From Thelephora terrestris (lineage: Eukaryota > Basidiomycota > Agaricomycetes > Thelephorales > Thelephoraceae), in contig WIUZ02000002.1 in the NCBI GenBank assembly GCA_015956445.1, positions 2,480,001 through 2,544,000 of the forward strand: a stretch of DNA of 64,000 nucleotides, read 5' to 3'. Of this stretch, positions 19,061 through 63,287 are shown piece by piece (positions within the stretch are counted from its first letter, which is position 1; the number at the start of each line of letters is the position of its first letter). Made by a program: the position numbers and the translations under genes. The notes beneath the pieces were generated by a model. That model was not told where the DNA came from and ran no database searches. It saw nothing but the letters and a program-made list of their open reading frames with translations.

Positions 19061-19122
19061 ACGGGTGGGCGCGTTTTAAATGGGGGGCAAGAGTTGTTAT
19101 TGACCATTACTTAATCAGAATG

Positions 19123-21260
<2,138 letters not shown>

Positions 21261-21330
21261 AAAAACGATATATTGCGCAGGGGAGAAAAAAACATTGTTC
21301 GAAAGTCGGGCAAATGATTAGTACATCTAT

Positions 21331-23178: not shown

Positions 23179-23400
23179 CCACAGTGGGTTTTATGTTGAG
23201 GGCTACATCAGAACGTGGTTGACTGATCGGAGAAGTTTGACATATGTTGCCCACGTTGGCCGCGTCGATTACTTAAAATAATAGACGTTCGGTTTTCATC
23301 TGAGGCACACGTAAATTCCTGACCAGTAGGTTTGCTTCCGGTGAAGACGACCTCCCAGGTTTCACTGAGAATTTGATAGAAATGGAATTTCTGGTAAATA

Positions 23401-32392: not shown

Positions 32393-35309
32393 TGTCAGGG
32401 CCACTCTTCGCCCTTCAGGTACCAGTGCTGTTGGTGAGTCGCAACTCCAACCAACAAGAAACAATGGGGCAAAGGGGGAACGACTTCCCTATATCCACCC
32501 AAAGTCTACGTGGTCCAAAACGCGATGGACGAGCGTTCTCCGGTAGGTTGTCCGAATTCACAGCAGGAGTGCCGAGCCTCTATCAGATCAATCCCTATCG
32601 TCTTCTGAGGGCAGAGATAAGAGCCCGAGGATGGCGCCTCAAACTGGTGCTTGATTAAGAGAGCGGCGAGGAACTCCTTTTTGTAAGCGCGTTCGCCGAT
32701 TCTTAATGCAAGGCTGAGAGAGAGAGGAGAGCGAATGTGTTCAGAGAGTTACTCGATAAGCTCTTCAGTGGCCTACAGCAAATACACCAATGCTGCAAGG
32801 AGAAGAGGACTTCCCGAGATATCAAAGATGGGGAGTCCCCAGCTACTCTACTGGTACCTATATAGGAGAGCGGCCGGGACAGAGATAATCCTATCTAATA
32901 ATAACTCGGAGCAAAGAAGGGCCGAGAGTAAGCTAGAACAGTAAGCGGCCCGAAACAGAGAATAGAAATGGTAAAGGAATGACTAATGGGTCAGGGTTCA
33001 TGAGAGAATAAGAAAGGGGTCATGACGTTGTGTGGGAAAGGAATGACAAAGAACAATATCACATGTGAAGACTGATCAATAAGAGGACGATGCGTCAGCT
33101 CGTCCGCTCGGGACAACAAAAGACCGAGTGGGGCTTGAATGGTTGAAGCGAATGTATGGGGAGTCTGGGCCGGTGAAACGATGGACCGATCCAATGGCGA
33201 ATAGGGCGCAAGCGCTCTTGATGGTTGGATAAAGCGTAGCGCGAACCGGCCGTTGGATCCATCAAACTCCCTTCTTCTCAAACCAACAATCCTACCAACC
33301 AACTACTCATCCATTATGCCCATGATCTCCGATCGTGTCTTCCGTGCTGAGAACAGCACCGCTACCATCGAGTCCGCGGATCCTCGGTCCGTTCAGAACA
33401 AGGGGTACTTACTGCCGAACGCCAATGTGGTGTACCCTAGTTATCGCGAGGTGCGACGTCACGTGTTGCCGTTTGCTGGCAACAACTGACATCGTGTTGT
33501 AGATCTTCGCGGTTGCCGATAAGGTGGATGCTCGACAACTGGAGGCAACGATCGCCAGGCCTCCCCACTACTTGACCATGGATGACGAGTTGTGGTACCA
33601 CAACTTGATTGACCACAAGTTACAGGAGTCTATGCGCGGGGTCACGTTTGACACCGAGTTGTGTATGCCATGGGAGACTCCGGTGGTGTCATCGTTGTGG
33701 GGTCTTCTGAAGATGGGAATCTACGACCTGGGAAACGGCGAAGGAAGGTGGCTGGGAGCGACTCATTCGCAACATTACACAGCAGCCGTTGGTCACCGCC
33801 TTTGGTTCCTTTTGAGGACAGAACAGAAAGCGGTGAGTCGGTCTGTGCATCCCGCTTGTGGGATAACACTGACAGGCTTGTAGAATGAGCGGCTGAAGCG
33901 TGAAGTGAAGGAAGCGAAGGACGATGCCCGTAGGATGTACTCGGAAGCGTTGGACACAAAGAAGACGCTGCTCCTGATGAACGATACACTCCGCGTGACG
34001 TTTGAGAGCGAGATGCTGGCGATGCGCGAAGAACACAACCGATTGGTTGAGTCATTGAAGGAACGGGACGACACCATTCAGCGAGACCTGATCGAGGTCG
34101 ACCGATGGCTCAACCGTCATCGAAGGGCCTTGAATGAGTTGGATACCAAGGTCGGTGTGTCTTCCCCTGGTCTTGATCCGAGGGGGCTCATACCACTTCT
34201 AGGTTGACACGTTGGACGACGCCTTGCCGTTGTTGGGCGCTCGGGTCGAATCGATGAGCGAGCGGTTGTGCCATTGCCGCACTCGTTCGGTGGCTGCGGT
34301 TCGCGATGAGTCTGAGGACGAGTCGATACCGGATCGGATGGCTTCCCCAATAGGTGGGATGTCAGTTGACATATTTGGCTTGTCCACTGACATCCTTTTT
34401 AGCCTCCGACAGTTCATACCGTACACCGGCGCATACTGATGGCGGGGAAGAGGTCGTCCGCGAGACGTCTGAGGAGACGGCCGTGAATCCGGCTAGCAGT
34501 TCTCCTGAGTTGGAGTACACGGGGGAGAACGAGGTGGTTGTTCCGGTTCCGCCTCCGTCGATCTCGCCGGTGCGTGGGCAACGTTCTATCCGTGCTCGTT
34601 GTTGGGTTCCTTATCGTGGGGCACTTCGTCCAGCGCACCGCATGCGTCCCAGTAATCCCAACGCTGTCCGCCAGGGTGGAGACATTGAGTCCACCGTCCT
34701 ATTCCGATGCGACGATGCTACAGTGTCGCGTGGATCACGGCGAGCTGATTCCGGTGGAGTCCGTCAACGTGAACGGCTTAACCGACCTTACGCTCTTGTC
34801 GGTCCAGCGTGCAGCGGAGGCCGTTCGCCTGGTGGCTCAACTGACCGAGAGAGTGGAGGGTTGGTCAGTCCAGAGGACTCTGGATCAGACTATGGTCGAT
34901 TCAGCGAGGAACCGCCTGCGCACTGAGGTTCAGCTGGCCATAGCTCATCGTCTGGAGGAAGCTCGGGTCGTCGAGATGGTCGACGAGGAAGTCGTCGAGA
35001 GTGCCTCGGAGGGGACGGAGGAGGAGGTTGCCAGTGCTGAGGAGTACTGGCAGACCAGGTCTTGACGGCTAGGGTTTGTACACCTTGGTCCTTGTCCATA
35101 GAGTCCGTGCGGATTCAACTCCGTCGGCTGTTCGTCGTGTGTGCGTCCGTGTGTAATATTATCTGTGCCTTTGTCTGTGTTCTTTGATGACGTGTGAGTT
35201 CGTGATAAGGGGGGCTGATAAGATAAGAAAGGGGTATGGGTAAGGAAAGTGGGCGAAAGTTGGATGTAAAAAATGGTTCAAAAAGGAAATAGAATTCAGC
35301 ACGCTGACA
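32393..35309 (+). mobile_element. E4: TGTCAGG...CTGACA element (2.9 kb)
   Basis: The left end TGTCAGGGCCACTCTTCG resembles E2 (TGTCAGGGCCACTCTACC); the right end is 'attcagcacgctgaca'. CCAGC flanks both sides (32388-32392 and 35310-35314). The 5' leader keeps the E2 motif 'ccggtaggttgtccga'. It carries a single five-exon gene. It is a divergent paralogue of E2, inserted in the accessory gene remnant. Confidence 0.9.
33316..34926 (+). CDS. E4 coiled-coil protein (468 residues), unknown function
   Basis: Exons 33316-33450, 33503-33832, 33884-34150, 34203-34353 and 34403-34926 join in one frame of 469 codons. Order: a short polar N-terminus; a globular block with 'HYLTMDDELWYHNLIDHKL'; a long charged coiled coil from 'NERLKREVKEAKDDARRMYS' to 'RALNELDTK'; a Cys pair 'CHCRTR'; then an acidic and Pro-rich tail with 'ELEYTGENEVVVPVPPPS'. 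The first three introns match E2 positions; the fourth (34354-34402) is absent from E2 and resembles an E1 intron. A second long frame overlaps the tail and runs to 35065. No enzyme motif is visible. Homologous to the E2 protein throughout; function unknown. Confidence 0.7.
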
Positions 35310-35888
35310 CCAGCCACGCCAGGACTTAGAGGCATCTGGATCTTTTACTTCTAAGTCTTGGTATGCATTTGCCGGAATTTTGCCGTTTTCGCCGAGCGGC
35401 AGGTACTTCTGTGGGATGAGTTTGACGATGGAGCGCTTGGTCGTCTTCGTGTCTGTTTGCCGAGCGCGAGACGCAAATGATTGGACCTAAGTGGTTTGAT
35501 GGGTTCCGCAAGTAATAGAAGCAGGAACAGCTTGCAATGACTCACTTGGCGCAAGATCTTCTGAATAAACTTTGATGGGACATCGGACTCGAGGCAGGAT
35601 TTGAGAAAGGGCAGATGACTGGTGATTGCGTTGAAGTCTGCCATGTAGATCTCTCGTTGGACCAGTGTGCTATAAGAAGGCACAGTGAATAATCATTGTA
35701 AGGTGGGCATTGGAGGCACTCGCAGGTCTTGGGCGTGGTCTTGTGCCTGTGTCAGGGCCACTCTACCCCAACAACTACCAGTGCACTGTCACGAACGCGT
35801 GACATAATGTCTAAAATCACACAGATAATTCAAGACATTGGTCTTATTCGCAATTGTAGTAATAATACAAGGGAAAACAAGAGGAAGA

Positions 35889-36756
35889 CTAGACAAGGAG
35901 GAAAGGATCTATCTTACAGACGCAATCCTGATCTATCGGACAATGATGAGCAAAGTGGAAAGGGTTGTACACCAACTGAGGGCAGTAAGTATAGTCCCGA
36001 GATACCAGGTCCACCCAGCAGTCCCGGCACCCTAGAACGTCATGCTCCAACCCATTGAACATATCCCTCCTCACTGAATCTAGCCCTTCACGAACTAGAT
36101 CGAATCCATACTTCTCCTGCAGACTTGCCACTTCCAACTTCAACCTCATTCGAACCTGATGACTCTTGCTTGAGGGACGACACTGTTGTCCAGAACGAGT
36201 CATCGGACTCTTGCGCTCTTTCTTCGAAGTCCTCGTCACCATCTGAGGAACTGGGGCAGGACTCCAGGGAGGGGATTGAGGAAGAGGGACTCCTCGATCC
36301 TGGCGGTGTCGGAGGGACAATGGGGGAGTGAGGAGCGGGGTCGGTGCAATACGCTCCTTGGCACTGGTGGCCAAAATAGCGGAAGAGAGATTCCTGGAAT
36401 GGTTTCCAATGTTCCAAGGCGAAGTGAGTAAAGTCTTCGTTAAGACTGTTAACGATAACATACATAACATCCATCCTGCTCTCCAACTTCTTAATACACT
36501 CCTCCCTCTCTCGCTCCATTGCATCCACTAATGGAGAGACACCAGGAGCCCATGGTCGAGCACGGTTAGGATCTTCATAACCGACTTCTTCCCAAACTTG
36601 AGGGGGAGCACTGTGAGCCGACAAGAACTCTATGGCAACCCGGTTGTCATGGGCGATGTTAGCAGGGGAGTCGTACAAGTGGTGAGCGGGGTCGTAAGGG
36701 GCGTCGTCTTTGTAAGAGACGGAGACGAAAGGGGTGGCTTCAGCGTTGAGAGACAT
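35889..36756 (-). CDS. E3-A leftward gene, unknown protein
   Basis: Starts at 36756 (MSLNAEATPFVSVSYKDD) and ends at 35889 ('CKIDPFLLV'). Blocks: 'HHLYDSPANIAHDNRVAIEF', 'DAMEREREECIKKLESRMDV' (coiled coil), 'FRYFGHQCQGAYCTDP' (Cys/His-containing), an acidic Ser-rich linker, and a C-terminal Cys-rich region 'DVLGCRDCWVDL', 'HFAHHCPIDQDCVCK'. The two long frames overlap around 36150-36240 and one must pass into the other through a short intron or a frameshift that I could not place; copy E3-B shows the same arrangement. Spaced Cys and His suggest a metal-binding fold, which is inference. Confidence 0.6.
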
Positions 36757-37165
36757 AGTAGTAGGGGTTGTTTGTAAGGGGAAAGAGTTGCTGTGAGTTG
36801 GTGGGAGTGGAAAGGAGGCGATAGGGAGAAAGACCAAACCATACCACGGGTTAAATACATCCAGATCAATGGAGTACCCAAACGGGCAAAGACAATACGC
36901 CATTACTCATTATCATCCCAAAAAGGATAAACGAACCCTCCACCCTAAATTGCAATTCCATCAAACACCGAGAAATCCCCACCGATCACGGGAAATCCCC
37001 ATTGCTCTTCTATTGACACCGTCAAACGTGAGAATTCCCCATCAATCATGGGAAATCCCCACCAGTCTTCTATTACTACCTTGAAACATGAGAAATCCCC
37101 ATTGTGCTTCTAATGACTCATCCACTATTGTTCTCCTGTTCTGCACTTGTTATTAATCGTTCTAA

Positions 37166-37666
37166 CACTGGGGGCAGGGGCACCTGGAATTGGTGATTAC
37201 ATCTTGATTACATGGTGAGTTCATGTGCACTTTTCAATAATTGTAATCGCCGATTCCAGGTTGATTACATTTCAAATGTTACCTTGACATGTAATCCAAC
37301 CAATGTCCACCAATTCCATTTGAAATGTTCTCAATAAATGTTTCTGGGATGTTTTTAACCTGTCGGCAAAAATAATACTGCAATGTAATCAGCATGTTCT
37401 TCAATCGTCCGAGATGTAATCTAAATGCGCTCAAAAACATGAGATGTTTTCACAATGTACCCACTAGGCACATTCAGGAAACATTGCTTGGGAACATCTT
37501 GAGGAAATTTCAAATGGAGCTGGTGGCAACAGTTGAATTACATGTCAAGGTAACATTTGAAATGTAATCAACCTGGAATCGGTGATTACAATCATTGAAA
37601 AGTGCACATGAACTCACCATGTAATCAAGATGTAATCACCAATTCCAGGTGCCCCTGCCCCCAGTG
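37166..37666. mobile_element. 501-bp CACTG-ended MITE, copy 2
   Basis: Same family as 11605-12105, with TAA duplicated on both sides. It lies in the intergenic region between the divergent E3-A genes, upstream of the plus-strand TATA box. E3-B lacks it, so it inserted after the E3 copies separated. Confidence 0.93.
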
Positions 37667-37771
37667 TAAGTCCCACCTCTCTGACTCATTTGACCTGCCC
37701 TAAATTACGCACAGACCATGTTGATTCCTGTTTGACTCGTTGTAGAATTATGACTCCTGTAGAGGATTGGG

Positions 37772-37778
37772 TATATAA
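37772..37778 (+). promoter_or_regulatory. TATA box of the E3-A rightward gene
   Basis: TATATAA lies 150 bp before the ATG at 37928, within 'gaggattgggtatataagga', followed by a pyrimidine-rich tract. The same string is conserved at about 59743-59755 in E3-B. Comparable TATATAA boxes precede E1 genes (41818-41824) and 'tataaga' precedes E2 genes (56891). Confidence 0.6.
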
Positions 37779-37927
37779 GGAAGAGCGTTCGCTCCTTTCT
37801 TTTCCCCATTCTCAATCTCTTCTGTACTCGTCTACCAAATACTTGGATAAACAAGTAAGCTGAGGAATTTTCCTCAAGGTCTTACCTTTTATCTGACTCA
37901 TTCAAGCAGGAATTCTCCTGCCAGTGT

Positions 37928-38581
37928 ATGTTCAGTGCCCCCAATCCATTCCCCTCTAACAGTCCTGTTCCCCGACCAGTCATACCCAATGCTCGACGCT
38001 CTATCTGGGAATATAAGCTCATCAGGAGCCTCCAGCTAAATAGAACCTCTGGTCTATTGGCTCACCACCCCTATTATCGTCCCTTCGCTGCCCTTGACGC
38101 CGGAGTAACTACTCCCCCCTTTTTATTAGGAGCTGATCATCAGTTTCTCTGGAAGTCTGATTTCACTGAGAGCGTGCTAGCCACTGTCTACTTCAGTATC
38201 AGCCCAGCCTTTTACTTTCCCACTCCACGAATCCACCTAACCACCAACATTCATACTCGCTGCCCTGCCATCATAGTTCTCTGGTGGGATATACCAACTG
38301 ACTTACCTTATCCGGTTATAGAATATCTTAACAGCTTTGAAGCCCTCAGCGACCAAGACTTCGAGCCTTTCATCCAACACCTGATCAAATTCTGCAACGA
38401 CTACAACGCTCCCATTCATCCCTATCAATTCGAGTCCCTGCTCGCTCTTGATATTCCCCCTCCTCTAGTTTCCACTCCAGGAACTCCTTTCCTCAAACCC
38501 CGTTCGGACACACCCTACCCTGCTAATCCTCTAGTGTCTCCCCTAAACAGTAAGCAGGCCCACAACCCTGACATGCACTGA
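37928..38581 (+). CDS. E3-A rightward gene, unknown 217-residue protein
   Basis: A single-exon frame with no coiled coil: 'SIWEYKLIRSLQLNRTSG', 'YYRPFAALDAGVTTPPFLLG', 'ESVLATVYFSISPAFYFPTP', 'PAIIVLWWDIPTDLPYPVIE', 'LSDQDFEPFIQHLIKFCNDY', then a Pro-rich tail. The frame runs through the element's right end and stops 8 bp outside it; in E3-B the related frame stops at 60523, 20 bp inside. The hydrophobic, aromatic composition suggests a small globular domain. I recognise no family. It diverges from the leftward gene with separate promoters. Confidence 0.65.
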   Translation: MFSAPNPFPSNSPVPRPVIPNARRSIWEYKLIRSLQLNRTSGLLAHHPYYRPFAALDAGVTTPPFLLGADHQFLWKSDFTESVLATVYFSISPAFYFPTPRIHLTTNIHTRCPAIIVLWWDIPTDLPYPVIEYLNSFEALSDQDFEPFIQHLIKFCNDYNAPIHPYQFESLLALDIPPPLVSTPGTPFLKPRSDTPYPANPLVSPLNSKQAHNPDMH

Positions 38582-40568
38582 GCCGACTCCGCAGAGTACT
38601 CACTAGTCCAACTAGCTTGTGAGAGAACGATCACGTCTCTATTCTTCTGGTAGGTTGTCCGAGGTCACTACAAGTCAGGTCGAAATCCTAAAGAGAAACC
38701 CAACCTAAACCGTACTTCGTTCGGTTTAACCAACAAGGGTTTATCCCTACAACAGGATTGATGACTCCACCAGTTGATCGACTGGACGCTTGAGGTGTTC
38801 TAATATGAACGCTGGGGTTCTATAGTTACGAGGCGCAGTTGATGCGCAGAGTGGGAGGGAGAGCAGATGGGGGATGTCTTGGATCAAACAAGAAACTCTG
38901 ACTTGACCTTAACTGCAACTGGGCTGAGAAGGGCAGAGGATTTCCTGAGGTAACAAAACTAAGGTACTACAATACAGCCACAGTTGCTACTTATACTAAA
39001 GGAGTGGCCATGACGTCAATACCCTAATATACCCTTATCAAGCCAGAACAAAGGGAGATAAGGAGTGTGAGAACGCTAAGTAAGGGAAGCGAACAAGGGT
39101 GACGCATGGGAGAATAAAGGACAAAGGGCCTTACTAGCGTGTGAAGGATTGCATAAAAGATAAGAAATGTCCGCATGAAACATAGGGGTAAAGATAACAC
39201 TAGTCCTAAAAGAAAAAGGGGCATGGGGTCATGAAAGTTCGTACCTGGGGATCTCACCCAAGGGCCAGGTGTCAATCTCCCTTTACATGGCCTCTGCCAG
39301 CTGGATTCAGGAGTAGAGACATTCAACATCCCTTGTTGTCTGTAGGCGGTAACAGCATCACGGACTAGTGGCAACCTCAACGTACGTCCGAACATGAGGA
39401 GGTCGGGCCTAGACTCATGGGACATGAGGGATTACAGATTCACCGGTGTTTCATGCTAATGGCTACTCCACATTCGCTGGGCTAAACAAAAAGAGTCTAA
39501 GGCACTCCTTCCAAATAACGGCAATTCCTTCCTCCGGTTAAGAGACTGTGATGTGACGGTCCACGTGTGTGATCAGGGTCCAGGGTTGGTCGTAATCGTA
39601 AAGTCATAAGGGGTTGTAAAAGGGGGTCGTGATGTCATGAAAGGGTCATCAGGGTCTTGAGACCTATTTTTAGTGCGTGCGCGTTCTAGGCGTTCCGGAA
39701 CAAAGTTCTTCCAAGGCTGTCCCGCGGGCCAAGGTGTCAGCTTGATGTAGTAAGCCAATGATGATGGTACAGGGGCGGAAGTTGATGTGACCCGGACCAA
39801 TGAGGTTTGTCGAGGCAGGTCACATGAAGGATCACCAATCTAGGCTATAAGAAGGACGTCTTCTTGGAGCCATCCTTGATCAGCAACACCAGCAACTTCC
39901 CCATCATCTTACCAAAACATGTCCTTCCCAAACAACCACACCTACAAAGTCGCCAACGGCATCTCCACCATCTCCCGTATCAACCGTCGTGCCACTGCCC
40001 GCAAGACCTACGCCAATGCGGCGGGGACTCCCTATACCACTGATGACCAGGTATGGGGGAGACCTAGAGCTTCGTGTGTTTGCACTAATGCCTTCCTCTA
40101 GGTAGAGGTTACGTTCTTTAGGGCGTTGATGTTCAGCTAACGGCTTCTAGATCTTGGAGGTCGTCAAGGAGGTGGACACTGAACGTCTCAGGGAGATGAT
40201 CCCTCATTTGATGGGGTTGACCTGGGACGATGAGCTCTGGGTCCGTACAATGATTGCCGAGAAGGTGGCCTTCCAGATGAGGGGTAGGTTCGGGGAGTTG
40301 GAGCATCCAATCAAGAAGGAGCTCTGGTACACCCTGCAGAGGGGAATCTACGATCAGGACCTGTTGGAGCACGGGGCAACCGTTCCTCGGGCCGTCCGCC
40401 ATGCCACCGCTTCCACTAGTCTCTTGTGGTCGCTCGTTCGGGAAGGGGAGAGCCGGGTGGGTTCTCCGTTTGAATATTCGAGTATGACTCTCAACTAATC
40501 AAACTGCCTAGGTGGAACGTTTAGAGCGCGAGGTGAAGGAGGCGAAGGCAGACGTCCTTCATCTGTCA

Positions 40569-40930
40569 CACAGTGGGCAATGGGGTCCAATCCAATCCGG
40601 ATTATCCCCTGTTTATGTTCCGATTAGGATAAATATTCAGTGTATTTCCTTATCTAGTATATACCTGAAAATCCGGGAATAATCCAACAAGGATTATTGT
40701 TTGAATATTTTTCAGATTATCTAAAATATTCCACTGTGCCAGCCAATCAGCTGGCTCCAATCACAATATTCCGTGCCGGAATATTTTACAAGTTTCCCAA
40801 CATTTTCTTAGCAATATTACCAAATATTTTCCAGTACTAAACCAATACCGAAAATGTAAGTAATATTTATCCTAATCAGAACATAAACAGGGGATAATCC
40901 GGATTGGATTGGACCCCATTGCCCACTGTG
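40569..40930. mobile_element. 362-bp MITE with CACAGTGGGC ends
   Basis: Long inverted repeats begin CACAGTGGGCAATGGGGTCC. TCA is duplicated on both sides (40566-40568 and 40931-40933), and comparison with E2-C shows a clean insertion in 'ctgtcagcggagg'. The core is AT-rich with 'cagccaatcagctggct' at its centre. No coding content. Confidence 0.92.
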
Positions 40931-41194
40931 TCAGTGGAGGGTCTTCATATGAATGAGACCTTGGCCGCATTCCAGCAGGGGACAAATGAGGCGTTGGAGG
41001 CGATGGTTGCTAACCATCAAGAGTTGATTGCCGGCCTGAAGGTTTGGGATAATAACATCAAGGGTGCTTTGGCCAGGAGGGATGAAAAGGTTCTTTCAGC
41101 CTTTGCAGGTTTATGCAATGACTGAGAGACTTCTTCTAGACTGAGCAACTCGAAGACGTGGCGGCCGTGTTGACTGCGCAGGTCGTGTCCTTGC

Positions 41195-43552: not shown

Positions 43553-44880
43553 CTTGCAGGATAAGACCTGCAACTGCAAGGAGGGTCCTGTGTTGGTTGG
43601 TCAGGGGACTGCCGACGTTCCGTTCGAGCTGGAGTACACCGACGAAGTGGTACTCCCATTGCCTAACCCGTCATCCTATGCGACACCTCCGATTGAGAAC
43701 TCTGTTCCCGTCCCAACTCCGGCCCCGGCTTCCACTTTGGCCGCGTCCGACAAGGAGAACTGTGGGCGCTGCGTCTTGCAGCCAATCCATCAGTTGGTGA
43801 AGATTGAGGATGAGGTCATGGTCGTTGATCGGGCCGAAGATGCTCCGAGAGTTGCCGAGGTACGTCCGGTGACTAAGGGACAACGTTGCAAACGCTCTCG
43901 ACGCCGTCCTGCCCATCGCATGACCGCATTGGCTAATCCTTACCCTCGACCAGTTGAGTTGGATGGTGACCAGTCTGGTCGAAGTGAGGAGCGAGGATTC
44001 CGATATCGGGTCCACCGTCCTTTCCAACAGGTCGAGTCAGAGGTCCAGCGAAGGCACTTCACCAGACTCGCAGTACAGGATCCCACCCAGGGGTCCGACG
44101 AGGGAGACGGAGGGTCGCTTGCCGACTACGTTGATAGTCCTGCCGAGCGGTCACCCGGTGATGGAGATGTGGGACCAGATGTTCCGCAGTTCGGTGACAT
44201 CTGGGAGGCTGATCAGACCGCTCGAAGGCATCTCTTCCTATCGGCTTGAGCTAGTCGTTCAGCTGAGTGCCAAAGACGGTGACACCATGTTCGGGGAGGT
44301 CCTTGCAAGGAGGGGCCAGCACTACGATCTCCGGGATGGACAGTTGATGACCTTTAGGCCTGCCGTAGATAGAGTCGATTTCTGATGGGACGTTGATAGC
44401 ATTTTGTATGGCCATGTAGTTCCGATTCACTGGGAATAGTACGCGCGTGTGTGTGTTTTGAATGATTGGTGTGAAGGATAAAGAATGTGAAGCATTCAAA
44501 CACAAGAAATGGTGAGAAGAGTTCGAAGAAAGAGCGTGTTATAAAAAGTTTAAAAATACCATGTTCCTGACAATATACAAGTCCATGAAAGGATTTGCAA
44601 CTTGACAGAGCCAACTCGATTTTTCCCTGATTTCTTTGTTCTCCTGAGGGGTGAGCTTGGGCTCGCTGAAGTGTAGGGTAAGCATGTGGTTATCGGATGG
44701 GGTTCGCGAGGTGCTACATACCTCTGGGGATTGTTCTCAGAAAGCTGCGTTGCCATGGTCGTTCGAGGGAGGGATTCAATGGGCGGTTGCACCCCTAATG
44801 TATCCCTCCTGTGCGGTTTATTTGTTTCAGTTAGCAAACTCCAAACAAGGATAGATCCAATGCACCAGTTGCATCCGCTG

Positions 44881-53999: not shown

Positions 54000-54500
54000 C
54001 ACTGGGGACAGGGGCACCTGGAATTGGTGATTACATCTTGATTACATGGTGAGTTCATGTGCACTTTTCAATGATTGTAATCACCAATTCCAGGTTGATT
54101 ACATTTCAAATGTTACCTTGACATGTAATTCAACCGTTGCCACTAACTCCATTTGAAATTTCCTCAAGATGTTCCCAAGCAATGTTTCCTGAATGTGCCC
54201 AGTGGGTACGTTGTGAAAACATCTCATGTTTTTGAGCACATTTAAATTACATCTCGGACGATTGAAGAACATGCTGATAACATTGCAGCATCATTTTTGC
54301 CAACAGGTCAAAAGCATCCCAGAAACATTTGTTGAGAACATTTCAAATGGAATTGGTGGACATTGGTTGGATTACATGTCAAGGCAACATTTGAAATGTA
54401 ATCAACCTGGAATCGGCGATTACAATTATTGAAAAGTGCACATGAACTCACCATGTAATCAAGATGTAATCACTGATTCCAGGTGCCCCTGCCCCCAGTG
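54000..54500. mobile_element. 501-bp CACTG-ended MITE, copy 3, with mismatched flanks
   Basis: Same family as 11605-12105. The left flank (TCC) belongs to the Plavaka 3 gene and the right flank (TCA) to an E2 gene tail, and they do not match. The likely explanation is recombination between two MITE copies, joining two loci at this point. Confidence 0.88.
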
Positions 54501-56963
54501 TCAGTCAGTTGGTGCCGATCAAGGAGATGGTCGTGGACAGGGCCGAAGATGTTCCGAGGGTTGCCAAGGTACGTCCGGTGACTAAGGGGCAGCGTTGTAA
54601 ATGCTCCTGACGCTGTATCGCGCATTGCATGGCACCCTCGTCTTACCCTTATCTGCATCCAGTTGAGTTGGATGGTGACCAGTCTGGTTGGGATGAGGGA
54701 GGACGGTTCCGATACCGGGTCAACCGTCCCAACCGACAGGTCGAGTCGGAGGTCCAGCGTAGGCACCTCACTCAACTCGCAGTACAGGATCCCGCCCAGG
54801 CCTCTGATGAGGGAGACGGAGGGTCTCTCTTTGACTACATTGACAGTGCTGCCGAGCAGTCACCCGGTGATGGAGATGTGGGACCAGGTGTTCTGAAGTT
54901 CAGTGACATCTGGGCGGCTGGTGGGTCCCTTCGAAGGGCTCTCTTTGTATTGACTTGAACTAGTTGTTTCATTGAGTGCAGAGGATGGGGACGCCATGTT
55001 TGGAGAGATGCTCGCCAGGAGAGGCCAGTGGTTTGACCGGGATGGACAGCTCATGTGTTGGGTGCCTGTAGAAGATAAGATTGACTTCTGAATGGACTTG
55101 TATAAGCATTGTAGTATAGCCTTGTGGTTCTGGTTTGCTTTGAATGGATGGCGTGTTTCGTGTGTTGAATGCAAGGAATGAAGGAAAGGTGTCACGAACG
55201 CGTGACATGTTGGTCAAAATCACACAGATAATTCAGGACATTGGTCTTATTCGCAGTAATAAAAGTACAAAGGTAGTTAACAAACATTTTGGAACTAAAC
55301 TAGGACAAAAGGGTCTACGTCGCAAGCACAATCCTGAGTATACGGACAGCGATGAGCGAAGTGGTGAGGGTTATGTACACTCTGAGGGCAGTAAGCGTAC
55401 ACCCGAGTTACCGGATCTTGCCAACACTCTCGGCATCCCAACACGTCATGACTCAAGCTGTCATGCATCTCCCGCTTCACGTCCGACAACGCCTCACTCA
55501 CTAACGCGAACCCATAGCGGTCCTGAAGACTTGCTACCTCCACCTTCAACCTCATCCGAACCTGACGTGACTTGTCAGAGGGACGACAACGTTGACCAGA
55601 ACGAGTCATCGGACTCTTGCGGTTCTTCTTCTTCTGGGACCTCTCCACCATCTGACGAACTGGGGCAGGACTCCAGGGAGGGGATGGAGGGAGAGGAACA
55701 CCCTGATCCTGGCGGCGGCGAAGGGACAACTGGGGACTTGCAAGGGGGGTCGGTGCAATAAGCCCCTCGACATTGGTGTCCGAAATATCGGAAGAGAGAC
55801 GCCTGGAAAGGCCCCCAATGTTCCAAAGTGAAATGAGAGGAGTCCTCGTTCAAGCTGTTTGTCAGGGCCACTCTACCCCAACAACTACCAGTTCACTGAG
55901 CCGACTCCGCAGAGTACTCACTAGTCCAACTAGCTTGTGAGAGAACAATCACGTCTCTATTCTTCCGGTAGGTTGTCCGAGGTCACTACAAGTCAGGTCG
56001 AAATCCTAAAGAGAAACCCAACCTAAACCGCACTTCGTTTGGTTTAACAAGCAAGGGTTGATCCCTACAACAGGATTGATGACTCCACCAGTTGATCGAC
56101 TGGACGCTCGAGGTGTTCTAATATGACTGCTGGGAGTCTATAGTTACGAGGCGCAGTTGACGCGCAGAGCGGGAGGGAGAGCAGATGGGGATGTCTTGGA
56201 TCAAACAAGAAACTCTGACTTGTCCTTAACTGCAACTGGGCTGAGAAGGGCAGAGGATTTCCTGAGGTAGCAAAACAAAGGTACTACGATACAGCCACAG
56301 TTGCTACTTATACTAAAGGAGTGGCCATGACGTCAATACCCTAATATACCCTTATCAAGTCCAGAACAAAGGGAGATAAGGAGTGTGAGAACGCTAAGTA
56401 AAGGAAGCAAACAAATATGACGCGTGGGAGAATAAAGGACAAAGGGCCTTACTAGCGTGTGAAGGATTGCATAAAAAGATAACAATAGTCCGCATGAAAC
56501 ATAGGGGTAAAGATAACACTAGTCCGAAAAGAAAAAGGGGCATGGGTCATGAAAGTTCGTACCTGAATCTAGACCACGCCCAAGGGTCAGGTGAGCACCG
56601 TCTCTGAGCTTCTGTGATTGGCTAGAGATTGAAGGAACTCTACACATCCATGAGGGGTTGTAAAAAGGGGTTTGTGATGTCATAAAGGGGTCATCAGGGT
56701 CTTGAGACCTATTTTTAGTGCGCGCGCGTTCTAGGCGTTCCGGAACAAAGTTCTTCCAAGGCCGTCCCACGGGCCGAGGTGTCAGCTTGATGTAGTAAGC
56801 CGACGATGATGGTACAGGGGCGGAAGTTGATGTGACCCGGACCAATGAGGTTCGTCGAGGTAGGTCACATGAAGGATCACCGATCTAGGCTATAAGAAGG
56901 ACGTCTTCTTGGAGCCATCCTTGATCAGCAACACCAGCAACTTCCCCATCATCTTACCAAAAC

Positions 56964-58565
56964 ATGTCCTTCCCAAACAACCACACCTACAAAGTCGCCA
57001 ACGGCATCTCCACCATCTCCCGTATCAACCGTTGTGCCGCCGCTCGCAAGACCTATGCCTGTGCGGCTGGGACTCCCTATACCACGGATGACCAGGTATG
57101 GGGGAGACCTAGAGCTTCGTGTGTTCACACTAACACCTTCCTCTAGGTAGAGGAACGTTCTTTTGGCGTTTGATGTCAAACTAACAGCTTCTAGATCTTG
57201 GAGGTCGTTACGGAAGTGGACGTCGAACGTCTCAGGGAGACGATGCCTCATTTGAAGGGGTTAACCTGGGATGATGAGCTTTGGGTCCGTACGATCATCG
57301 CCGAGAAGGTGGCCTTCCAGATGAGGGGTAGGTTCGGAGAGTTGGAGCATCCGATCAAGAAGGAGCTCTGGTACACCCTTCAAAGGGGAATCTACGATCA
57401 GGACCTATTGGAACACGGAGTGACCGTTCCTCGGGCCATCCGCCATGCTACCACTTCCACTAGTCTCTTGTGGTCGCTCGTTCGAGAAGGAGAAAGCCGG
57501 GTAGGTTTTCTGTCTGAATATTCGAGTATGACTCTCGACTAACCAGACTGCCTAGGTTGAACGATTGGAGCGGGAGGTAAAGGAAGCGAAGGCAGACGTC
57601 CTTCGTCTATCAGCAGAGGGTCTTCAATTGAAGGAGACCTTGGCTGCCTTCCAGCAGGGGACGAACGAGGCGTTGGAGGCAATGGTCGCCAACCATCAAG
57701 AGTTGATCGCCAGTCTGAAGGTCCGAGACAACAACATTAAGGGGGCGTTGGCCAGGAGGGATGAAAAGGTCCTTTCAGCCTTTGCAGGTTTATGCAATGA
57801 CTGAGAGATTTCCTTTAGACCGAAGAACTCGAGAACGTGGTGGCGGTGTTGACGGCGCAGGTCGAGTCCTTGCAGGACAAGACCTGCAACTGTAAGGAGG
57901 GTCCCAAATTGGTTGGTCAGGGGACAGCCGATGTTCCGTTCGAGTTGGAGTACGCCGACGAGGTGGTACTGCCATCGCCTAACCCGTCGTCCTATGCGAC
58001 GCCTCCGATCGAGAACGCGGTTCCCGTTCCGACTCCGGCTCCGGCTTCCACGTTGGCCGAGTCCGACAAGGAGAACTGTCATCGCTGCCCTTTGCAGCCG
58101 ATCAGTCAGCTGGTGAAGATCGAGGATGAGGTCATGGAGGTCGACCGAGCTGAAGATGCTCCGAGGGTCGCCGAGGTACGTCCGGTGACTAAAGGGCAAC
58201 GATGCAAACGCTCTCGACGCCGTGTTGCTCATCGCATGGCTCCATCGGCTAACCCTTATCCGCGTCCAGTTGAGTCGGATGGTGACCAGTCTGGTCGAGG
58301 TGGGGGACGAGAGTTCCGCTATCGGGTCAACCGTCCCTACCGACAGGTCGAGTCGGAGATCCAGCTTCGCCACCAGCGTCGACTCACAATACAGGATCCC
58401 ACCCAGGGGTCCGACGAGGGAGACGGAGGGTCGCTTGCCGACTACGTCGACAGTACTGTCGAGCAGTCACCCGGTGATGGAGATGTGGAACCAGGTGTTC
58501 CAGAGTTCGGTGACATCTGGGAGGCTGATCGGTCCGCTCGAAGGTATCTCTTCCTATCGGCTTGA
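56964..58565 (+). CDS. E2-C coiled-coil protein (465 residues), unknown function
   Basis: Exons 56964-57095, 57195-57500, 57556-57768 and 57819-58565. Order: a 44-residue polar N-terminus ('NHTYKVANGISTISRI'); a block with 'HLKGLTWDDELWVRTIIAEK' and 'ELEHPIKKELWYTLQRGIYD'; a coiled coil from 'VERLEREVKEAKADVLRLSA' to 'IKGALARRDEK'; a Cys-containing 'LQDKTCNCKEGP'; and a Pro/acidic tail. The gap between exons 1 and 2 holds two complete introns back to back (57096-57146 and 57147-57194). A second frame overlaps the end and runs to 58701 ('MFGEVLARRGQHYDLRDGQ'). Homologous over its length to the E4 protein. No enzymatic motif. Confidence 0.75.
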
Positions 58566-58601
58566 ACTAGTCGTTCAGCTGAGTGCCGAAGATGGTGACG
58601 C

Positions 58602-58701
58602 CATGTTCGGGGAGGTCCTAGCGAGGAGGGGCCAGCACTACGATCTCCGGGACGGACAGTTGATGACCTTCAGGCCTGCCGTGGATAGAGTCGACTTTTG
58701 A
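58602..58701 (+). other. Conserved downstream frame of E2
   Basis: A frame of 32 codons from an ATG, continuing upstream in a frame overlapping the main gene, is kept in E2-A (28394-28493), E2-B (44286-44385) and, with many substitutions, in E2-D (about 54995-55091: 'MFGEMLARRGQ...DKIDF'). It may be a separate small protein or the true C-terminus reached by an extra splice or frameshift. Confidence 0.45.
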
Positions 58702-59899
58702 GGACGTTGTAGAAGCATTTGTATAGCCAGGTTGTTTCGTATTGCCGTGAATGTATGTGCGTTTGTGTGTTTTGAATGATTGGTGTGAAGGATAAGGAGT
58801 GTGAAGCATTCAAAACATAAGAAGTGATAAGAAGAGTTCGAAGAAAGAGCGTGTTATAAAAAGTTTAAAAATACCATGTTCCTGACACTGTTCATAATGA
58901 CGTACATGAGGTCCACGTGTTTCTCCAGCTTCGCAATCCTATCCTCCCTCTCCCTCTCCATGGCATCCAACAAAAGGACGGCCCCGGGTTGCCTAGCTTC
59001 GGGACCAGACCTAGAAGACCTGGTGTCCTCATACCCAGCCTGATCCCAGAATTGAGGAGGAGTGTTATGGGCGGTCAGGAAGTCGACGGCGACTCGATTG
59101 TCGTGAGCGATGTTTGAAGGGGAGTCGTAGAGGTGCTGTTCAACCTCATAAGGGCGGTTGGTCTTGAAGGAAGGGGAAAAGTCGAAAGGGATCGCGTTAG
59201 CGTTGAGAGCGGTAGCATGGACAGTGGAAGACATTGTATGGGAAGGTTGTTTATGAGAGGGGAGAGTAGTCAAGTATTGGTGGGAGTGGAAAAGAGGCGA
59301 TGGAGAGAAAAGACCAATAATCCCACTAGGTTATATATGCCCAAGTCAATGGGGCGCCCAAAAGGGGAAACAATAAAGCCATCACTCATTAAAGTCCCAA
59401 CTAAGGTAAACAAACCCTCAACCCCAATCGCAATTCCATCAAACTCTGAGAAATCCCCACCGATCACGAAAAATCCCCACCACACTTCTATTGCCACCAT
59501 CGATCCAGAGAAATTCCCATCGATCACGGGAAATCCCCAGCGCTCTTCTATTACTACCGTAAAACACGAGAAATCCCCTAATGCTTCCATCAGACTGTTC
59601 CTCTTATTATTCCCATATTACTAATTACTCTTTGTCGTCCTAAGTTCCCCTGACCTGACTCATTCGACCTACCCTAAACTACGCACAGACCATGTGGATC
59701 CCTGTTTGGTTCATTGTAGAATTATGACTCCTGTAGAGGATTGGGTATATAAGGAAGAGCGTTCGCTCCTTTCTTTTCCCCATTCTCAATCTCTTCTGTA
59801 CTCCTCTACCCACAATCCGAATAAACAAAGTAAGCTGAGGAATCCTCCTCACGTCTTATTTCTTCTGACTCATCTTAGTAGGAATACTCCTGCCAGTGT

Positions 59900-60523
59900 A
59901 TGTTCAGTGTCCCCGACCCTTTCCCCTCTACCAGTCCGGTTCAAAGACCAGTCGTCCCCGACACTAGGAGGTCTATCTGGGAGTATAAACTCATCAGAAG
60001 TCTCCAAGTAAACTGAACCGTCGGTTTACTCACCCATTTCCCTTACTACCGACCCTTTGCGGCCCTCGACGCCGGAGTTACCACTCCTCCCTTCTTATTA
60101 GGCGCAGATCACCAGTTCCTTTGGAACTCCAACTTTACTGAAAGTGTCTTAGCGACCGTTTACTTCAGTATAAGTCCGGCCTTTTACTTTCCCAACCCAC
60201 GCATCCACCTTACCACTAATGTCCACACCCACTCCCCTGCTATTATCGTTCTTTGGTGGGAAATACCAACTGAATTACCTTATTCTGTTATAGAATATCT
60301 CGTTAACTTCGAGTGTCTTAGCGATCAAGACTTCGAACCTTTTGTACAGCAATTGAGTCAGTTCTGTCAAGACTATCACTCGCCCGTCCACCCCCATCAA
60401 ACTGAGTCACCACTCTCGCTTGATATTCCTCCTCCTCTCATCTCTACACCCGGTACTCCGTTCAAAACTCGACCCGACACTCCTCACCCGTCCGCTAATC
60501 CTCTAGCACCCCACAAACAGTAA
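59900..60523 (+). pseudogene. E3-B rightward gene with one nonsense codon
   Basis: Corresponds to 37928-38581 of E3-A: 'SIWEYKLIRSLQVN', then TGA (60013-60015) where E3-A has AGA, then 'YYRPFAALDAGVTTPPFLLG', 'ESVLATVYFSISPAFYFPNP', 'PAIIVLWWEIPTELPYSVIE' and the stop 20 bp before the element's end. Most differences from E3-A are conservative, so the protein was under constraint before the nonsense change. Confidence 0.8.
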
Positions 60524-60855
60524 GCAGGCCCACAACCCTGACAAAAGGGAGTGTGAAGCATTCAAACATAAGGAATGGTAAGAAGAATTTGAAGAAAGAG
60601 CATGTTATAAAAAGTTTAAAAATACCATGTTCCTGACACTCACAGTGTGTTCCTGTAATCCAGTCATGTGCTGGTAAGCCAGGTGAGGTTGAGTTAGATG
60701 TTGGTCAGCTAGGGTATTTAAATTAAGGGTGGATTAGATAACAACTGATTAGATGAGGTCAAGTCAAGTTGCATCAGGATAGGTCAGGTGGACCACTTTA
60801 GGTTAGGTTGAGTGATCTGCGGCAGGCCGGGTTAAGGGCCAGGTCAGGGTAGGAC

Positions 60856-63287
60856 TGTCAGGCCGACGCGACCTCTACAGTTCAATAGCACTCTTGCTAT
60901 CCAAACCTATCACACGCAGGGGTCAAACACACAGTTATAACCCTGTTGCAAACCCAGGGATATCGGAAGTCTCTTCACAGACTAGATTGGAGAAGAGGAG
61001 AAAGAAGGAGACAAGGGTCTTCAAGCACTCTTGCTCTAAGCACACAGCAATAGAGGTCACGGAGAGTCTGATGATAACAAATCTAAGGAGTACAGGCTAA
61101 ACTACTCTGAGTATATATACTACTTAGATTTGTGACGTGACAGTGACATGTAACTACCCTAAAGATACAAACACAGACAAACATGGTCCGTGCGCAGCAC
61201 TGCATGGTCTGTGCGTTACGTGGTGACTAATGCTACAAATTATCAGCTGATAAACGAAAGTGTGGCGGCCAATAGCAATTTGAGAGCATTACAAAGCAGT
61301 TACAAAGCATGACGTAGCCTGGGAATGTTCGGAAGGAATGTGGGTATGACTGACTAACAGCCAATGGCAAAAGGGGAGCATATGACTAAGAAATAGGGGC
61401 ATATGATGCCATGTGGGTCATGCGCAGTAAACAATAGAAATGATGACTCAACTCCTGAGTCGTGGAAGGGGCGTGGCATTTGGTATATAACCAAAGGGGG
61501 TTGGATGACTGGTCTTCCAACAAACCCACCTTTGTTACACACACACACACAACCAGCATGCCTCGTGCTCAAACTCGTGTTCCCACTCGTCGTTCTTCCT
61601 CCTACTCTCCTGTCCAGGAGAACAACTTCAATATCGACCGCTTCTCTCATGCTCGTCGGGATGCTTCCCGCCCTTATCCCACTTTGGGAAATGTCATGGA
61701 CCGGACCGCCACCGCCGACCCTAATGAGGGTTTTACCGACTTAGGTTCGGGATGCCGGTTGACATATTTAGCATGTCTGCTGACGTTCCGCTTTAGGATT
61801 TAGGGATTTCATCCAGGCTTCTCGTAGGGTGTCTCGGCGCAAGTTGGCGCGCATCGAGACAAACCCTTATGCGACCGAACTCCTTAATAGGGGTGTCGAG
61901 TTCGTCACTGAGACCAACGAGACCTTCAACTCAGTGTTGGAGGCCAGCGTTATCCATACGGGTAACGTTGGGTCCATGTTGATGGATGAGATAGCTCATG
62001 TCAATGAGCGAGTTGATGGTCGTCGCGAAGAGATCGAGAAGTTGGAGAAGGAGTTCCTTGGATGCCATGAAGGCATTTTGAAGATTGAAGATGAACAGGA
62101 GCAGCAGGGTATGGCGATCGATAGGTTGAAGGTAAGAAAGTTTGGGTCCGGAGTAATTGACCTTTCTAACTCAAACTTTCTTTTAGGGAGAAGTGATCAC
62201 ATTGAAGGACTTGGTCTGGAGTCTCATTGCGAAGACCGGGGAATTGGAAGACGATAAGGTACTGGGACTGGGATCGAAGATAGTTGTCATCTTCTAACCC
62301 TGTTCCTGTTAGATCCGCCTTACTCGCCGTGTCTCCGAGTTGACCGGAGAAGTCCGGGATCTTCAGAGGAGGTGCAGCGAGCCGGAGGTCCGAGTCGAAG
62401 AGGAGGAGGGGGAAGAAGTTCTACATCGGGCCGGGTCGCCGATCATTCCTAATCGGGCCGAGTCGCCGCCTGCTCGTTTATTGGTCCGTCACGAGAACAG
62501 GTTAGTTCCTGTTGACGATGAGGTCATTGAGATCGGGAGCGACGAATTCTATCAGAACGTGGGAGTTGTCCGTAGGGACACTCCTCGTCCTGAGTTCGTG
62601 TCTACTCCTTGGGGTAGTCGCCGTCAATGGCCTGCTCTGGAGTATGATCCGTACGCCGAGTTCGTTCCCGATAGTGAACCAAACTCTGATACGGAGCTTC
62701 CAGATTACGATGATTTGTCGGACGTGGACCCGAACGAGATCCGGGAGCAGAACTGGTTGAACGAGGAGTTGGTGAGATCGGCATTGGAAGTAGTACAAAG
62801 GATCCGAAGAGATATTGATTAGATAACTCTTTTGTACTGTTGGCTTCCAATGAATCTTCTTTCTATTTTGTCTTATTGCGCGTGATCTATGAGTCGTAAA
62901 GCATAATGATTTTCATAAGTCCAATCCAAGGGTCAGATTAATAAGCCGGTTGACTTCTGCGAGAGGTCAGCGCGCGATGCTTATTAATACATCCCTTGTT
63001 GTCGGTAGTCTGAATATCTACTAGTCGTCCAGGGGCAACGGAGGGCCAGGTAGGGGGGATCTTCGTATGAAGGTCCGCCGGTACATGTTCACGTATTATA
63101 CCTCGGGTCTTCTGGGGTATCTTGACTAGTAGCACGTTCCACGTATTGGACTTTGAGTCGTTAAGCATAGGGCATACTGCATAATAAACAGTTTACCGCC
63201 GTGTTTAGGGCAGGGCACCAACTGACTTAGTGGTGATGAGGCGTTAAATAAAGGAAATAAAAGGGGGTAAACGGCGAAATCATCACA
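60856..63287 (+). mobile_element. E1-C: complete copy in a TTAGG-like array (2.43 kb)
   Basis: TGTCAGGCCGACGCGACC at 60856, 'gaaatcatcaca' ending at 63287, AGGAC duplicated (60851-60855 and 63288-63292). Same layout as E1-A with an intact four-exon gene. Because the flank is repetitive, the matching 5-bp duplication here is weaker evidence than for E1-A, but the ends are identical. Confidence 0.93.
61558..62822 (+). CDS. E1-C coiled-coil protein (367 residues), unknown function
   Basis: Exons 61558-61744, 61797-62131, 62187-62258 and 62313-62822 join in frame. The basic head (MPRAQTRVPTRRSSSYSPVQ), a coil from 'RKLARIETNPYATELLNRG' to 'LIAKTGELEDDK', a second short coil 'SELTGEVRDLQRRC', and an acidic tail 'DYDDLSDVDPNEIREQNW' make up the protein. 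Introns: intron 1 has an unusual donor (GTTCGG); introns 2 and 3 are ordinary GTAAG/GTACT. A TATATAA box lies before the ATG (about 61491). There is no known domain I can name. Confidence 0.77.

What the first reader, a model, noticed from the sequence alone, without database searches (positions are those of the whole stretch)
32393..63287. Four families of TG...CA elements with 5-bp target duplications carry their own spliced genes but no transposition enzyme
Eight copies with matched 5-bp duplications: E1-A CTTGC, E1-B CGCTG, E1-C AGGAC, E2-A GAGGT, E2-C CTGTT, E3-A TGCAC, E3-B AAAGG, E4 CCAGC. All start TGTCA; E2, E3 and E4 end (C)CTGACA, E1 ends ATCACA. 5-bp duplications with TG...CA ends are established hallmarks of retroviral-type integrase. 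Yet each 2.3-3.0 kb element holds one or two intron-bearing genes for coiled-coil or unknown proteins, and nothing resembling RT, integrase or transposase. Two explanations fit: giant gene-bearing solo LTRs, or a new class of non-autonomous element mobilised in trans by an LTR-type integrase. Either would be unusual.
Basis: partly seen in the sequence, partly recalled or inferred. Interest (0 to 1): 0.93.

Follow-up and report, generated by a model that had tools for sequence, protein, structure and literature searches.

The report
Giant retrotransposon ends carrying antisense genes
Repeats of 2-3 kb in a soil fungus turn out, for at least two of four families, to be the oversized end pieces of retrotransposons, mostly left behind without the enzyme part, and they carry intron-containing genes that run backwards relative to the retrotransposon.

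Summary
In detail: the TG...CA elements and their 5-bp duplications are real and recur genome-wide (E1 26 of 28 complete copies, E3 8 of 10). The genome is Thelephora terrestris. E2 and E4 are LTRs (3.3 and 2.9 kb) of two related Ty3/gypsy chromoviruses: 8 and 3 full elements exist, found by pol, PBS and PPT junctions alike, against 609 E2/E4-type LTR starts, so most copies are solo or broken LTRs. E1 shares their TATA/R-start motif in the same orientation and is very probably an LTR too, but no full E1 element was found; E3 stays unproven. The E2 and E4 genes lie in U3, antisense to pol, with GT-AG introns that the sense genomic RNA cannot splice, which explains how retrotransposed elements keep introns. 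The E1 gene has been under strong purifying selection (dN/dS 0.09; 24 of 30 copies intact), while copies are recombinant mosaics. Best reading: an LTR-borne antisense accessory gene, comparable to MMTV sag and plant/Boty antisense ORFs, but spliced and wholly inside a giant LTR, so solo LTRs remain gene loci. Protein function is unknown; a role in retrotransposition is inferred.

The parts
32393..35309 (-). E4: solo LTR (2917 bp, TSD CCAGC); strand given is the pol-sense strand of the parent chromovirus
33316..34926 (+). E4 gene, antisense to pol; modelled exons 33316-33450, 33503-33832, 33884-34150, 34203-34353, 34403-34926 (last exon uncertain)
   Evidence: open frames and GT-AG borders; first two exons found in both LTRs of full element C5; product homologous to E2's (29% identity, E 5e-30)
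32819..32829 (-). E4 R-start: 11 nt complementary to bases just after the 5' LTR, 35 nt after a TATA box (32859-32865)
35750..44572 (-). E2-B: E2 LTR interrupted by E3-A and E1-A; no matching TSD
35787..38573 (.). E3-A (TSD TGCAC), inside E2-B; contains a 502-bp foldback insert 37165-37666; LTR identity unproven
41195..43552 (-). E1-A (TSD CTTGC), inside E2-B; gene disrupted
44881..47303 (+). E1-B (TSD CGCTG); gene on - strand, so inferred pol sense is +; gene disrupted
   Evidence: (L013)
55190..60543 (.). E3-B (TSD AAAGG), interrupted by E2-C
55860..58887 (-). E2-C: solo LTR (TSD CTGTT); lacks about 300 bp present in most other listed E2 copies
56964..58565 (+). E2 gene, antisense to pol; modelled exons 56964-57095, 57195-57500, 57556-57768, 57819-58565 (C-terminal end uncertain)
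   Evidence: first exon found in both LTRs of full element C1
60856..63287 (-). E1-C (TSD AGGAC); strand given is the inferred pol-sense strand
61558..62822 (+). E1 gene: exons 61558-61744, 61797-62131, 62187-62258, 62313-62822; 367 aa
   Evidence: 30-copy alignment, codon-position divergence and dN/dS; homologous annotated T. terrestris proteins
61074..61119 (-). E1 TATA box (61112-61119) and TTTGTTAT R-start motif (61074-61081), inside a 70-nt segment with one letter only at 68 positions over 30 copies (27 of them without a gap there)
17037..28658 (-). E2-A: E2 LTR (TSD GAGGT) interrupted by an 8.3-kb insert; 12-nt complement to the E2 PBS at 17445-17456

Best explanation
E1, E2 and E4 are giant LTRs (2.4-3.3 kb) of Ty3/gypsy chromoviruses of Thelephora terrestris that look self-primed; most copies are solo or broken LTRs, presumably through LTR-LTR recombination. 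Shown for E2 and E4; for E1 inferred from a shared promoter/R-start motif. Each LTR's U3 holds a spliced gene on the strand opposite to gag-pol (E1: inferred orientation). The sense genomic RNA carries the gene in antisense, so its introns cannot be removed and survive reverse transcription, and copying of U3 from the 3' LTR places the gene in both LTRs (follows from established LTR replication). The E1 gene evolved under strong purifying selection (shown), so its coiled-coil protein most likely helps or regulates the element's propagation, for example as a nuclear accessory or anti-silencing factor (inferred). A solo LTR therefore stays a complete gene locus rather than only a scar. E3 is TG...CA-ended with 5-bp duplications and a coding signal, and is probably an LTR of another family, unproven.
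For: E4 copies in direct pairs flank an integrase on C5 and C12, and E4 LTR ends sit on the same PBS/PPT sides of a third pol on C23. The C5 internal region holds a gag frame with a CCHC knuckle (seen by eye) and pol with RT, RNase H, integrase and chromodomain, antisense to the E4 gene. E2 LTR ends bracket a sister pol (62%) on C1 with PBS and PPT. PBS-LTR junctions: 11 exact, 8 E2-type and 3 E4-type. LTR-PPT junctions include the same 8 and 3. Both match the 8 + 3 pol copies. Full elements have TSDs AACTG (C5), GTTTT (C12) and GATTA (C1), and LTR stretches 500/501 and 401/401 identical. First gene exons are present in both LTRs of C1 and C5. Self-priming complement 34-35 nt after the TATA-like box in E4 (11 nt) and E2-A (12 nt); same motif at 38-nt spacing in E1, E2-A and E4. 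E1: divergence cp1 5.1, cp2 3.2, cp3 17.3, introns 18.3%; 24 of 30 intact; median dN/dS 0.094, 406 of 406 pairs below 1. E2 and E3 copies show the same kind of codon pattern.
Against: No full-length E1 or E3 was found: with 204 E1 starts, none of the 11 exact junction hits is E1-type and the 3 weak ones were not followed, no flank of the 50 E1 copies read has the expected motif, and of 20 extra upstream flanks 18 are unlike any other and 2 are one inverted duplication, although E1 insertions look young. At the E2/E4 ratio (11 full in about 598 insertions) 3-4 full E1 elements would be expected; none has a chance of about 2% if the ratio is equal and the E1 PBS has the expected form. E3 lacks the R-start motif. 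E1's protein has no detectable homology to E2/E4's. The TATA-like box of E2 is weak (TATAAG; the TATA(A/T)A scan missed it). The E4 gene's selection was not measured. No expression data were seen. No known domain, so function is open.
Confidence: 0.86

Rival explanations
1. E1 (and perhaps E3) is an LTR-only mobile unit: LTR-like DNA with both integrase ends that is inserted as such, using the integrase of a full chromovirus in trans, rather than a solo LTR left by recombination.
For: 26 of 28 complete E1 copies have their own TSD; no E1-type PBS junction was found although the start occurs 204 times; copies carry few private changes (about 0.35-1% per site) and genes are intact in 24 of 30, so they are young yet not seen full-length. 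At the E2/E4 ratio 3-4 full E1 elements would be expected (chance of none about 2% under equal ratios).
Against: E2/E4 show the same kind of solo excess (11 full against 609 starts) with full parents known, so recombination can suffice, and the E1 PBS is only predicted. E1 keeps a promoter/R-start motif that makes sense for a full reverse-transcribed element.
Confidence: 0.1
2. The elements are DNA transposons of the Ginger or another TGT...ACA type (recalled) whose own coiled-coil protein is an unrecognised transposase.
For: TGTCA...TGACA termini, 5-bp TSDs, a gene with strong purifying selection in E1.
Against: E2 and E4 flank pol as direct repeats with PBS and PPT; terminal inverted repeats are only about 5 bp, and E1's two ends agree only in TGT.A; no transposase-like domain.
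Confidence: 0.03
3. The genes are a host gene family that the LTRs picked up and that selection keeps for the host, not for the element.
For: Intron-bearing genes with ordinary GT-AG introns and a TATA box 74 nt before the E1 start codon; strong constraint.
Against: E2- and E4-LTR genes are homologous to each other across two sister elements whose pols are 62% identical, so the gene was probably there before the elements split; database hits are T. terrestris hypothetical proteins (72 of 72 for E1, 70 of 71 for E2, the other an unnamed ENA contig), with no named relative in another fungus. Whether each of these lies in an LTR was not checked.
Confidence: 0.06

Closest known systems
MMTV sag (superantigen gene in the LTR U3 region; PMC4667437, passages read)
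   Same: Protein-coding gene mostly within U3 of the LTR; most sag-bearing contigs there had no other retroviral gene and were taken as solo LTRs (490 of 527); purifying selection reported for functional copies.
   Different: sag is in sense orientation (recalled) and the host is a vertebrate retrovirus; here the gene is antisense, has several introns, and lies in a fungal chromovirus.
Antisense additional ORFs of plant LTR retrotransposons (Grande gene23, RIRE2, Retand) and Boty brtn of Botrytis cinerea (PMC7264820, passages read; PMC8365987, passages read; Zhao et al. 2011 seen only as a citation)
   Same: Extra gene antisense to gag-pol, no clear similarity to other proteins, presumed role in retrotransposition.
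   Different: Those are described between pol and the 3' LTR; here the gene is wholly inside the LTR, so it is present twice per element and survives in solo LTRs.
HTLV-type antisense genes promoted from the 3' LTR (recalled; an antisense promoter in the HTLV 3' LTR is mentioned in a passage of PMC7264820)
   Same: Antisense transcription starting in an LTR, spliced accessory protein (recalled).
   Different: The HTLV coding sequence lies mainly outside the LTR (recalled); here the modelled exons are inside U3.
Tf1/sushi-type self-primed chromoviruses (recalled)
   Same: Chromodomain integrase, 5-bp TSD, start of the transcript complementary to the PBS.
   Different: Tf1-type LTRs are a few hundred bp and non-coding (recalled); here 2.9-3.3 kb and coding (E2, E4).
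VANC anti-silencing proteins of VANDAL transposons (PMC5735166, abstract and outline seen)
   Same: A possible functional parallel only: a TE-encoded accessory protein acting on the element's own DNA; here too the non-coding flanks (E1) are conserved.
   Different: DNA transposon of plants (recalled); no homology tested or claimed.

Membership tests
Ty3/gypsy chromovirus LTR (E2, E4) | Two direct LTRs flanking gag-pol, TG...CA ends, 5-bp TSD | tested here: met
   C5 and C12 (E4) and C1 (E2), TSDs AACTG, GTTTT, GATTA; gag read only in C5; the outer ends of the other 8 of 11 elements were not checked for TSDs
Ty3/gypsy chromovirus LTR (E2, E4) | RT, RNase H, integrase order with C-terminal chromodomain | tested here: met
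   Pfam scan of P0001, the E4-family pol (rve itself 25.5 bits, below its 32.6 cut-off); E2-family pol 62-63% identical from residue 5-9 to 1263, not scanned itself
Ty3/gypsy chromovirus LTR (E2, E4) | PBS after the 5' LTR and polypurine tract before the 3' LTR | tested here: met
   8 + 3 junctions of each kind at the pol copies; controls (reversed pattern, same mismatches) gave 7 and 14 hits against 14 and 34
Self-primed (Tf1-like) retrotransposon | First about 11 nt of the transcript complementary to the PBS | tested here: inconclusive
   Complement present 34-35 nt after a TATA-like box in E4 (11 nt) and E2-A (12 nt); transcript start and priming not tested
Ty3/gypsy chromovirus LTR (E1) | Full element with E1 LTRs around gag-pol | tested here: not met
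   None found by PBS-type pattern, by PPT-type pattern (the two hits with E1-like CATCACA are not E1 ends) or among 50 upstream flanks; so E1 is called LTR by motif, not a proven member
Ty3/gypsy chromovirus LTR (E3) | Full element, or R-start motif | tested here: not met
   No motif in E3-A; no shared internal flank by eye in the ends printed from 30 loci and the window; TSD 8 of 10
Solo LTR | Single LTR bounded by a TSD on both sides | tested here: met
   E2-A, E2-C and E4 in the window
Ginger-type DNA transposon | Transposase gene and terminal inverted repeats (recalled) | tested here: not met
   No integrase/transposase domain; ends match only about 5 bp
LTR-encoded accessory gene (MMTV sag kind) | Gene in U3 with a conserved coding frame | tested here: met
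   Gene lies between the pol-sense LTR start and the predicted R-start; codon constraint in E1 and E2
LTR-encoded accessory gene (MMTV sag kind) | Protein is made and acts in the element's life cycle | not testable with these tools
   needs RNA, protein and mobility data

The most novel reading that the evidence does not exclude
A retroelement whose selected unit is the LTR itself: LTR-only copies keep a working spliced antisense gene, supply its protein in trans, recombine as one pool, and (E1) spread without any full-length parent in this genome, moved by the machinery of sister chromoviruses.
Probability: 0.12. Interest if true: 0.92.

Novelty: new variant of a known kind. Interest (0 to 1): 0.7.

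Why it matters
Solo LTRs are normally read as dead scars. Here they keep a gene with introns and, in 24 of 30 E1 copies, an intact frame, so LTR-LTR recombination removes the enzymes but multiplies the accessory gene. It shows how introns can persist in a retrotransposed gene (by lying antisense), and it makes a question testable: do antisense genes of LTR elements help, or restrain, retrotransposition? It also warns gene annotators: 72 and 70 clusters of annotated T. terrestris 'hypothetical proteins' match the E1 and E2 genes, and many of these are probably LTR genes (not checked one by one).

Tried and rejected
Rejected: Ginger-like DNA transposon (paired LTRs, PBS, PPT found instead); TRIM/LARD (no paired LTRs without pol were seen, but this was not searched for as such). 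The PBS-like 54-bp match at window 35735-35788 is, on inspection, only the real E2-B start plus chance similarity. Two E1 copies with an identical upstream flank (C1:200884, C1:203566) are a local inverted duplication: the pattern occurs at only those two places. The PPT scan gave 34 hits against 14 for its control; 11 lie at the E2/E4 elements, 2 (C15, C24) proved E1-type LTR starts in near-identical flanks, 2 more with E1-like CATCACA are not E1 ends, and 19 were not looked at further. The PBS scan gave 14 hits against 7 for its control at up to 3 mismatches; the 11 exact ones are the elements, the 3 with 3 mismatches were not followed. A first self-priming test that demanded complementarity from the first base found nothing; the later test allowing an offset found it, so the offset was allowed after seeing the failure; in shuffles of the E4 stretch an 11-nt match occurred 2 times in 2000. 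For E2 the same offset test on the first 250 bases of the C1 LTR gave only one 11-nt match with a mismatch; the 12-nt match came from the longer E2-A stretch. The E1 motif was recognised after E2 and E4 were known. The C5:42583-type pol (35%) has no E1-E4 match in the 601 bases read downstream. Profile search against solved structures gave no match for the E2 protein and weak coiled-coil matches for E1's; PHROGs gave two weak matches of unknown function. Other papers looked at without use: PMC5408684 (passages), PMC10886601 (abstract and outline).

Limits: the genome search scores only the best candidates (40 for each long DNA query), so copy lists are lower bounds; the pattern scans list 100 of 204 and 100 of 609 places. 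E2 and E4 copies outside the window were seen only as small stretches. No RNA-seq, no second strain, no structure model.
Full report
WHAT IS THERE. The window is C12:2480001-2544000 of a 40.6-Mb, 60-contig genome. Matching proteins name it as Thelephora terrestris, and their contig lengths equal those of this genome. A ninth copy, E2-B (35750-44572, broken by E3-A and E1-A), has no matching duplication (GCCTG / ATATA), and E2-C sits inside E3-B. Genome-wide, of 30 fetched E1 loci (the best of 46 matches) 28 have both ends, and 26 of those have a perfect 5-bp duplication; two of the 26 are one segmental duplication. For E3, 8 of 10 copies with both ends recognised have it.

E4 AND E2 ARE LTRs. 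E4 copies occur as direct pairs around an integrase on C5 and C12. The C5 element runs 1119263-1130993, with duplication AACTG on both sides and a 5867-bp internal region that holds a gag frame with a CCHC knuckle (by eye) and a 1263-residue pol frame on the strand opposite to the E4 gene. Pfam finds RVT_1, RNase H, the integrase zinc domain, Tf2-1-like SH3 and a chromodomain; the integrase core itself scores below its cut-off. The C12 element has duplication GTTTT. A third pol on C23 has E4 LTR ends with the same PBS and PPT flanks. The E4 pol has 3 copies at 99-100% and 8 sister copies at 62-63%. On C1 the sister pol is bracketed by E2 LTRs, the left one 3301 bp, with duplication GATTA and an identical stretch of 401/401 bases; on C5 501 bases compared gave 500 identical. 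A pattern scan for PBS-LTR junctions gave 11 exact hits, 8 E2-type and 3 E4-type, plus 3 with three mismatches; its control gave 7 at up to three mismatches. A scan for LTR-PPT junctions gave 34 hits (control 14), of which 11, again 8 and 3, lie at these elements. Three counts agree on 11 full elements. The E2/E4 LTR start itself occurs 609 times with at most one mismatch (control 2), so at most 22 of these belong to full elements and the rest are solo or broken. That the ratio of solo to complete elements correlates with LTR length has been reported in plants (a passage of PMC7251063 citing Du et al. 2012).

E1. The E1 start occurs 204 times (control 1). No E1-type PBS junction was found, and none of the 50 upstream flanks read carries the expected motif. 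Of 20 flanks picked mostly from copies lying near another E1, 18 are unlike any other and 2 are a local inverted duplication. At the E2/E4 ratio 3-4 full E1 elements would be expected, so their absence is a point against the plain reading. But E1 shares the chromovirus promoter: E4 and E2-A both carry, in pol sense, a TATA-like box and, 34-35 nt on, a sequence complementary to the bases just after the 5' LTR (E4 11 nt, E2 12 nt), the self-priming arrangement known from Tf1 (recalled). E1 has such a box, the same 38-nt spacing and a TTTGTTAT motif in the same orientation relative to its gene, inside a 70-nt segment with a single letter at 68 positions over 30 copies, 27 of them without a gap. 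I therefore take E1 to be an LTR of the same clade whose full elements are missing from this assembly. E3 has neither a full element nor the motif, and stays open.

THE GENES. The E1 gene has four exons and three GT-AG introns of 52-55 nt and encodes 367 residues. Over 30 aligned copies (29 fetched loci plus E1-A; L004 left out as a duplicate) divergence is 5.1, 3.2 and 17.3% at codon positions 1, 2 and 3, 18.3% in introns, and 3.2 and 3.8% in the 5' and 3' non-coding parts. In 24 of 30 copies the frame is intact; GT-AG borders are kept in 30, 29 and 30 of 30 for the three introns. Median dN/dS is 0.094 and 406 of 406 pairs (29 copies, E1-A left out) are below 1. In the other frames (first 15 copies) it is above 1, apart from one reverse frame (0.17), as expected if its third positions coincide with the gene's. 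E2's three window copies show the same pattern (cp3 14-25%, cp1/cp2 4-8%), and so, more weakly, does the E3 minus-strand gene over 9 copies (18.7, 10.2, 29.8%). E4 had too few copies to test. E2 and E4 products are homologous (29-30% identity, E 5e-30 and 5e-31); E1 is not detectably related. No known domain was found beyond coiled-coil similarity. Database relatives of E1 and E2 are T. terrestris hypothetical proteins (72 of 72, and 70 of 71; for E2 only the 8000 best candidates were scored), while the E3 protein, of 35 hits, has 13 in T. terrestris and 20 on JGI contigs of at most about 12 kb.

YOUNG AND MOSAIC. Private changes per E1 copy are only 0.35-1.0% per site, so insertions look recent. 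Yet gene bodies differ by 17-18% at third positions and introns, and linkage between variants falls from r2 0.36 within 20 bp to 0.07 at 50-100 bp (222 sites, 29 copies, 0 of 1000 permutations as strong). The copies are short-tract mosaics, as expected from template switching during reverse transcription or from gene conversion; the data do not separate these. The low divergence of the non-coding flanks against introns points to strong constraint there or to homogenisation; this also is not resolved.

HOW IT MOST LIKELY WORKS. Shown: LTRs of E2 and E4 contain a gene antisense to pol, with open frames and GT-AG borders, whose first exon (C1, E2) or first two exons (C5, E4) are present in both LTRs of a full element, upstream of the predicted R-start and hence in U3. 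Follows from standard LTR replication: U3 is copied from the 3' end of the genomic RNA into both LTRs, so one template renews both gene copies; and in the sense RNA the gene's introns have no usable borders, so they persist. Inferred: the protein is an accessory or regulatory factor for retrotransposition, made from solo LTRs as well as from full elements. An anti-silencing role, as for VANC proteins of plant transposons (abstract of PMC5735166), is one guess; copy-number control is another.

KNOWN OR NEW. The parts have precedents: sag of MMTV lies mostly in U3 and is found mostly in solo LTRs (passages of PMC4667437); [quoted passage not shown] My ten paper searches (the held open-access library only, capped listings, one of them empty) listed no paper whose title, abstract start or passages I saw describe a spliced antisense gene wholly inside an LTR, or these Thelephora elements; one listed paper names T. 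terrestris together with transposable elements (listing only). I rate it a new variant of a known kind.

Noticed in passing
window 11604-12105, 37165-37666, 53997-54502: A foldback (MITE-like) element of about 502 bp with about 169-bp inverted arms, copies 94-96% identical, one inside E3-A; more than ten further matches in the genome.
   Followed up: no
window 48188-53521: 35-bp minisatellite arrays in inverted orientation (arms 48454-49797 and 50564-51907, 91% complementary) around interstitial telomere-like (AACCT)n/(AGGTT)n arrays.
   Followed up: no
window 29681-30896 and 31126-32068: Two stretches that match their own reverse complement at 99.6% and 96.6% (palindromes), upstream of the E4 insertion.
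   Followed up: no
window 18777-27091: An insert of about 8.3 kb inside E2-A, not identified.
   Followed up: no
G000:C23:1032750-1048088: Two E2 elements in tandem that seem to share the middle LTR (LTR-internal-LTR-internal-LTR), inferred from junction spacing.
   Followed up: partly
L066 (G000:C5:43900-44500): Downstream of a 35%-identical chromovirus pol there is a TATA box and an open frame for a basic protein on the pol strand (read by eye); possibly another coding LTR or a neighbouring gag.
   Followed up: no
L001-L030 (E1 copies): E1 non-coding flanks differ by only 3-4% while introns and third codon positions differ by 17-18%; cause (constraint or homogenisation) unknown.
   Followed up: partly
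L100 (G000:C15:670600-670760) and L101 (G000:C24:14740-14860): Two E1-type LTR starts in near-identical flanks near contig ends, probably a subtelomeric duplication.
   Followed up: no
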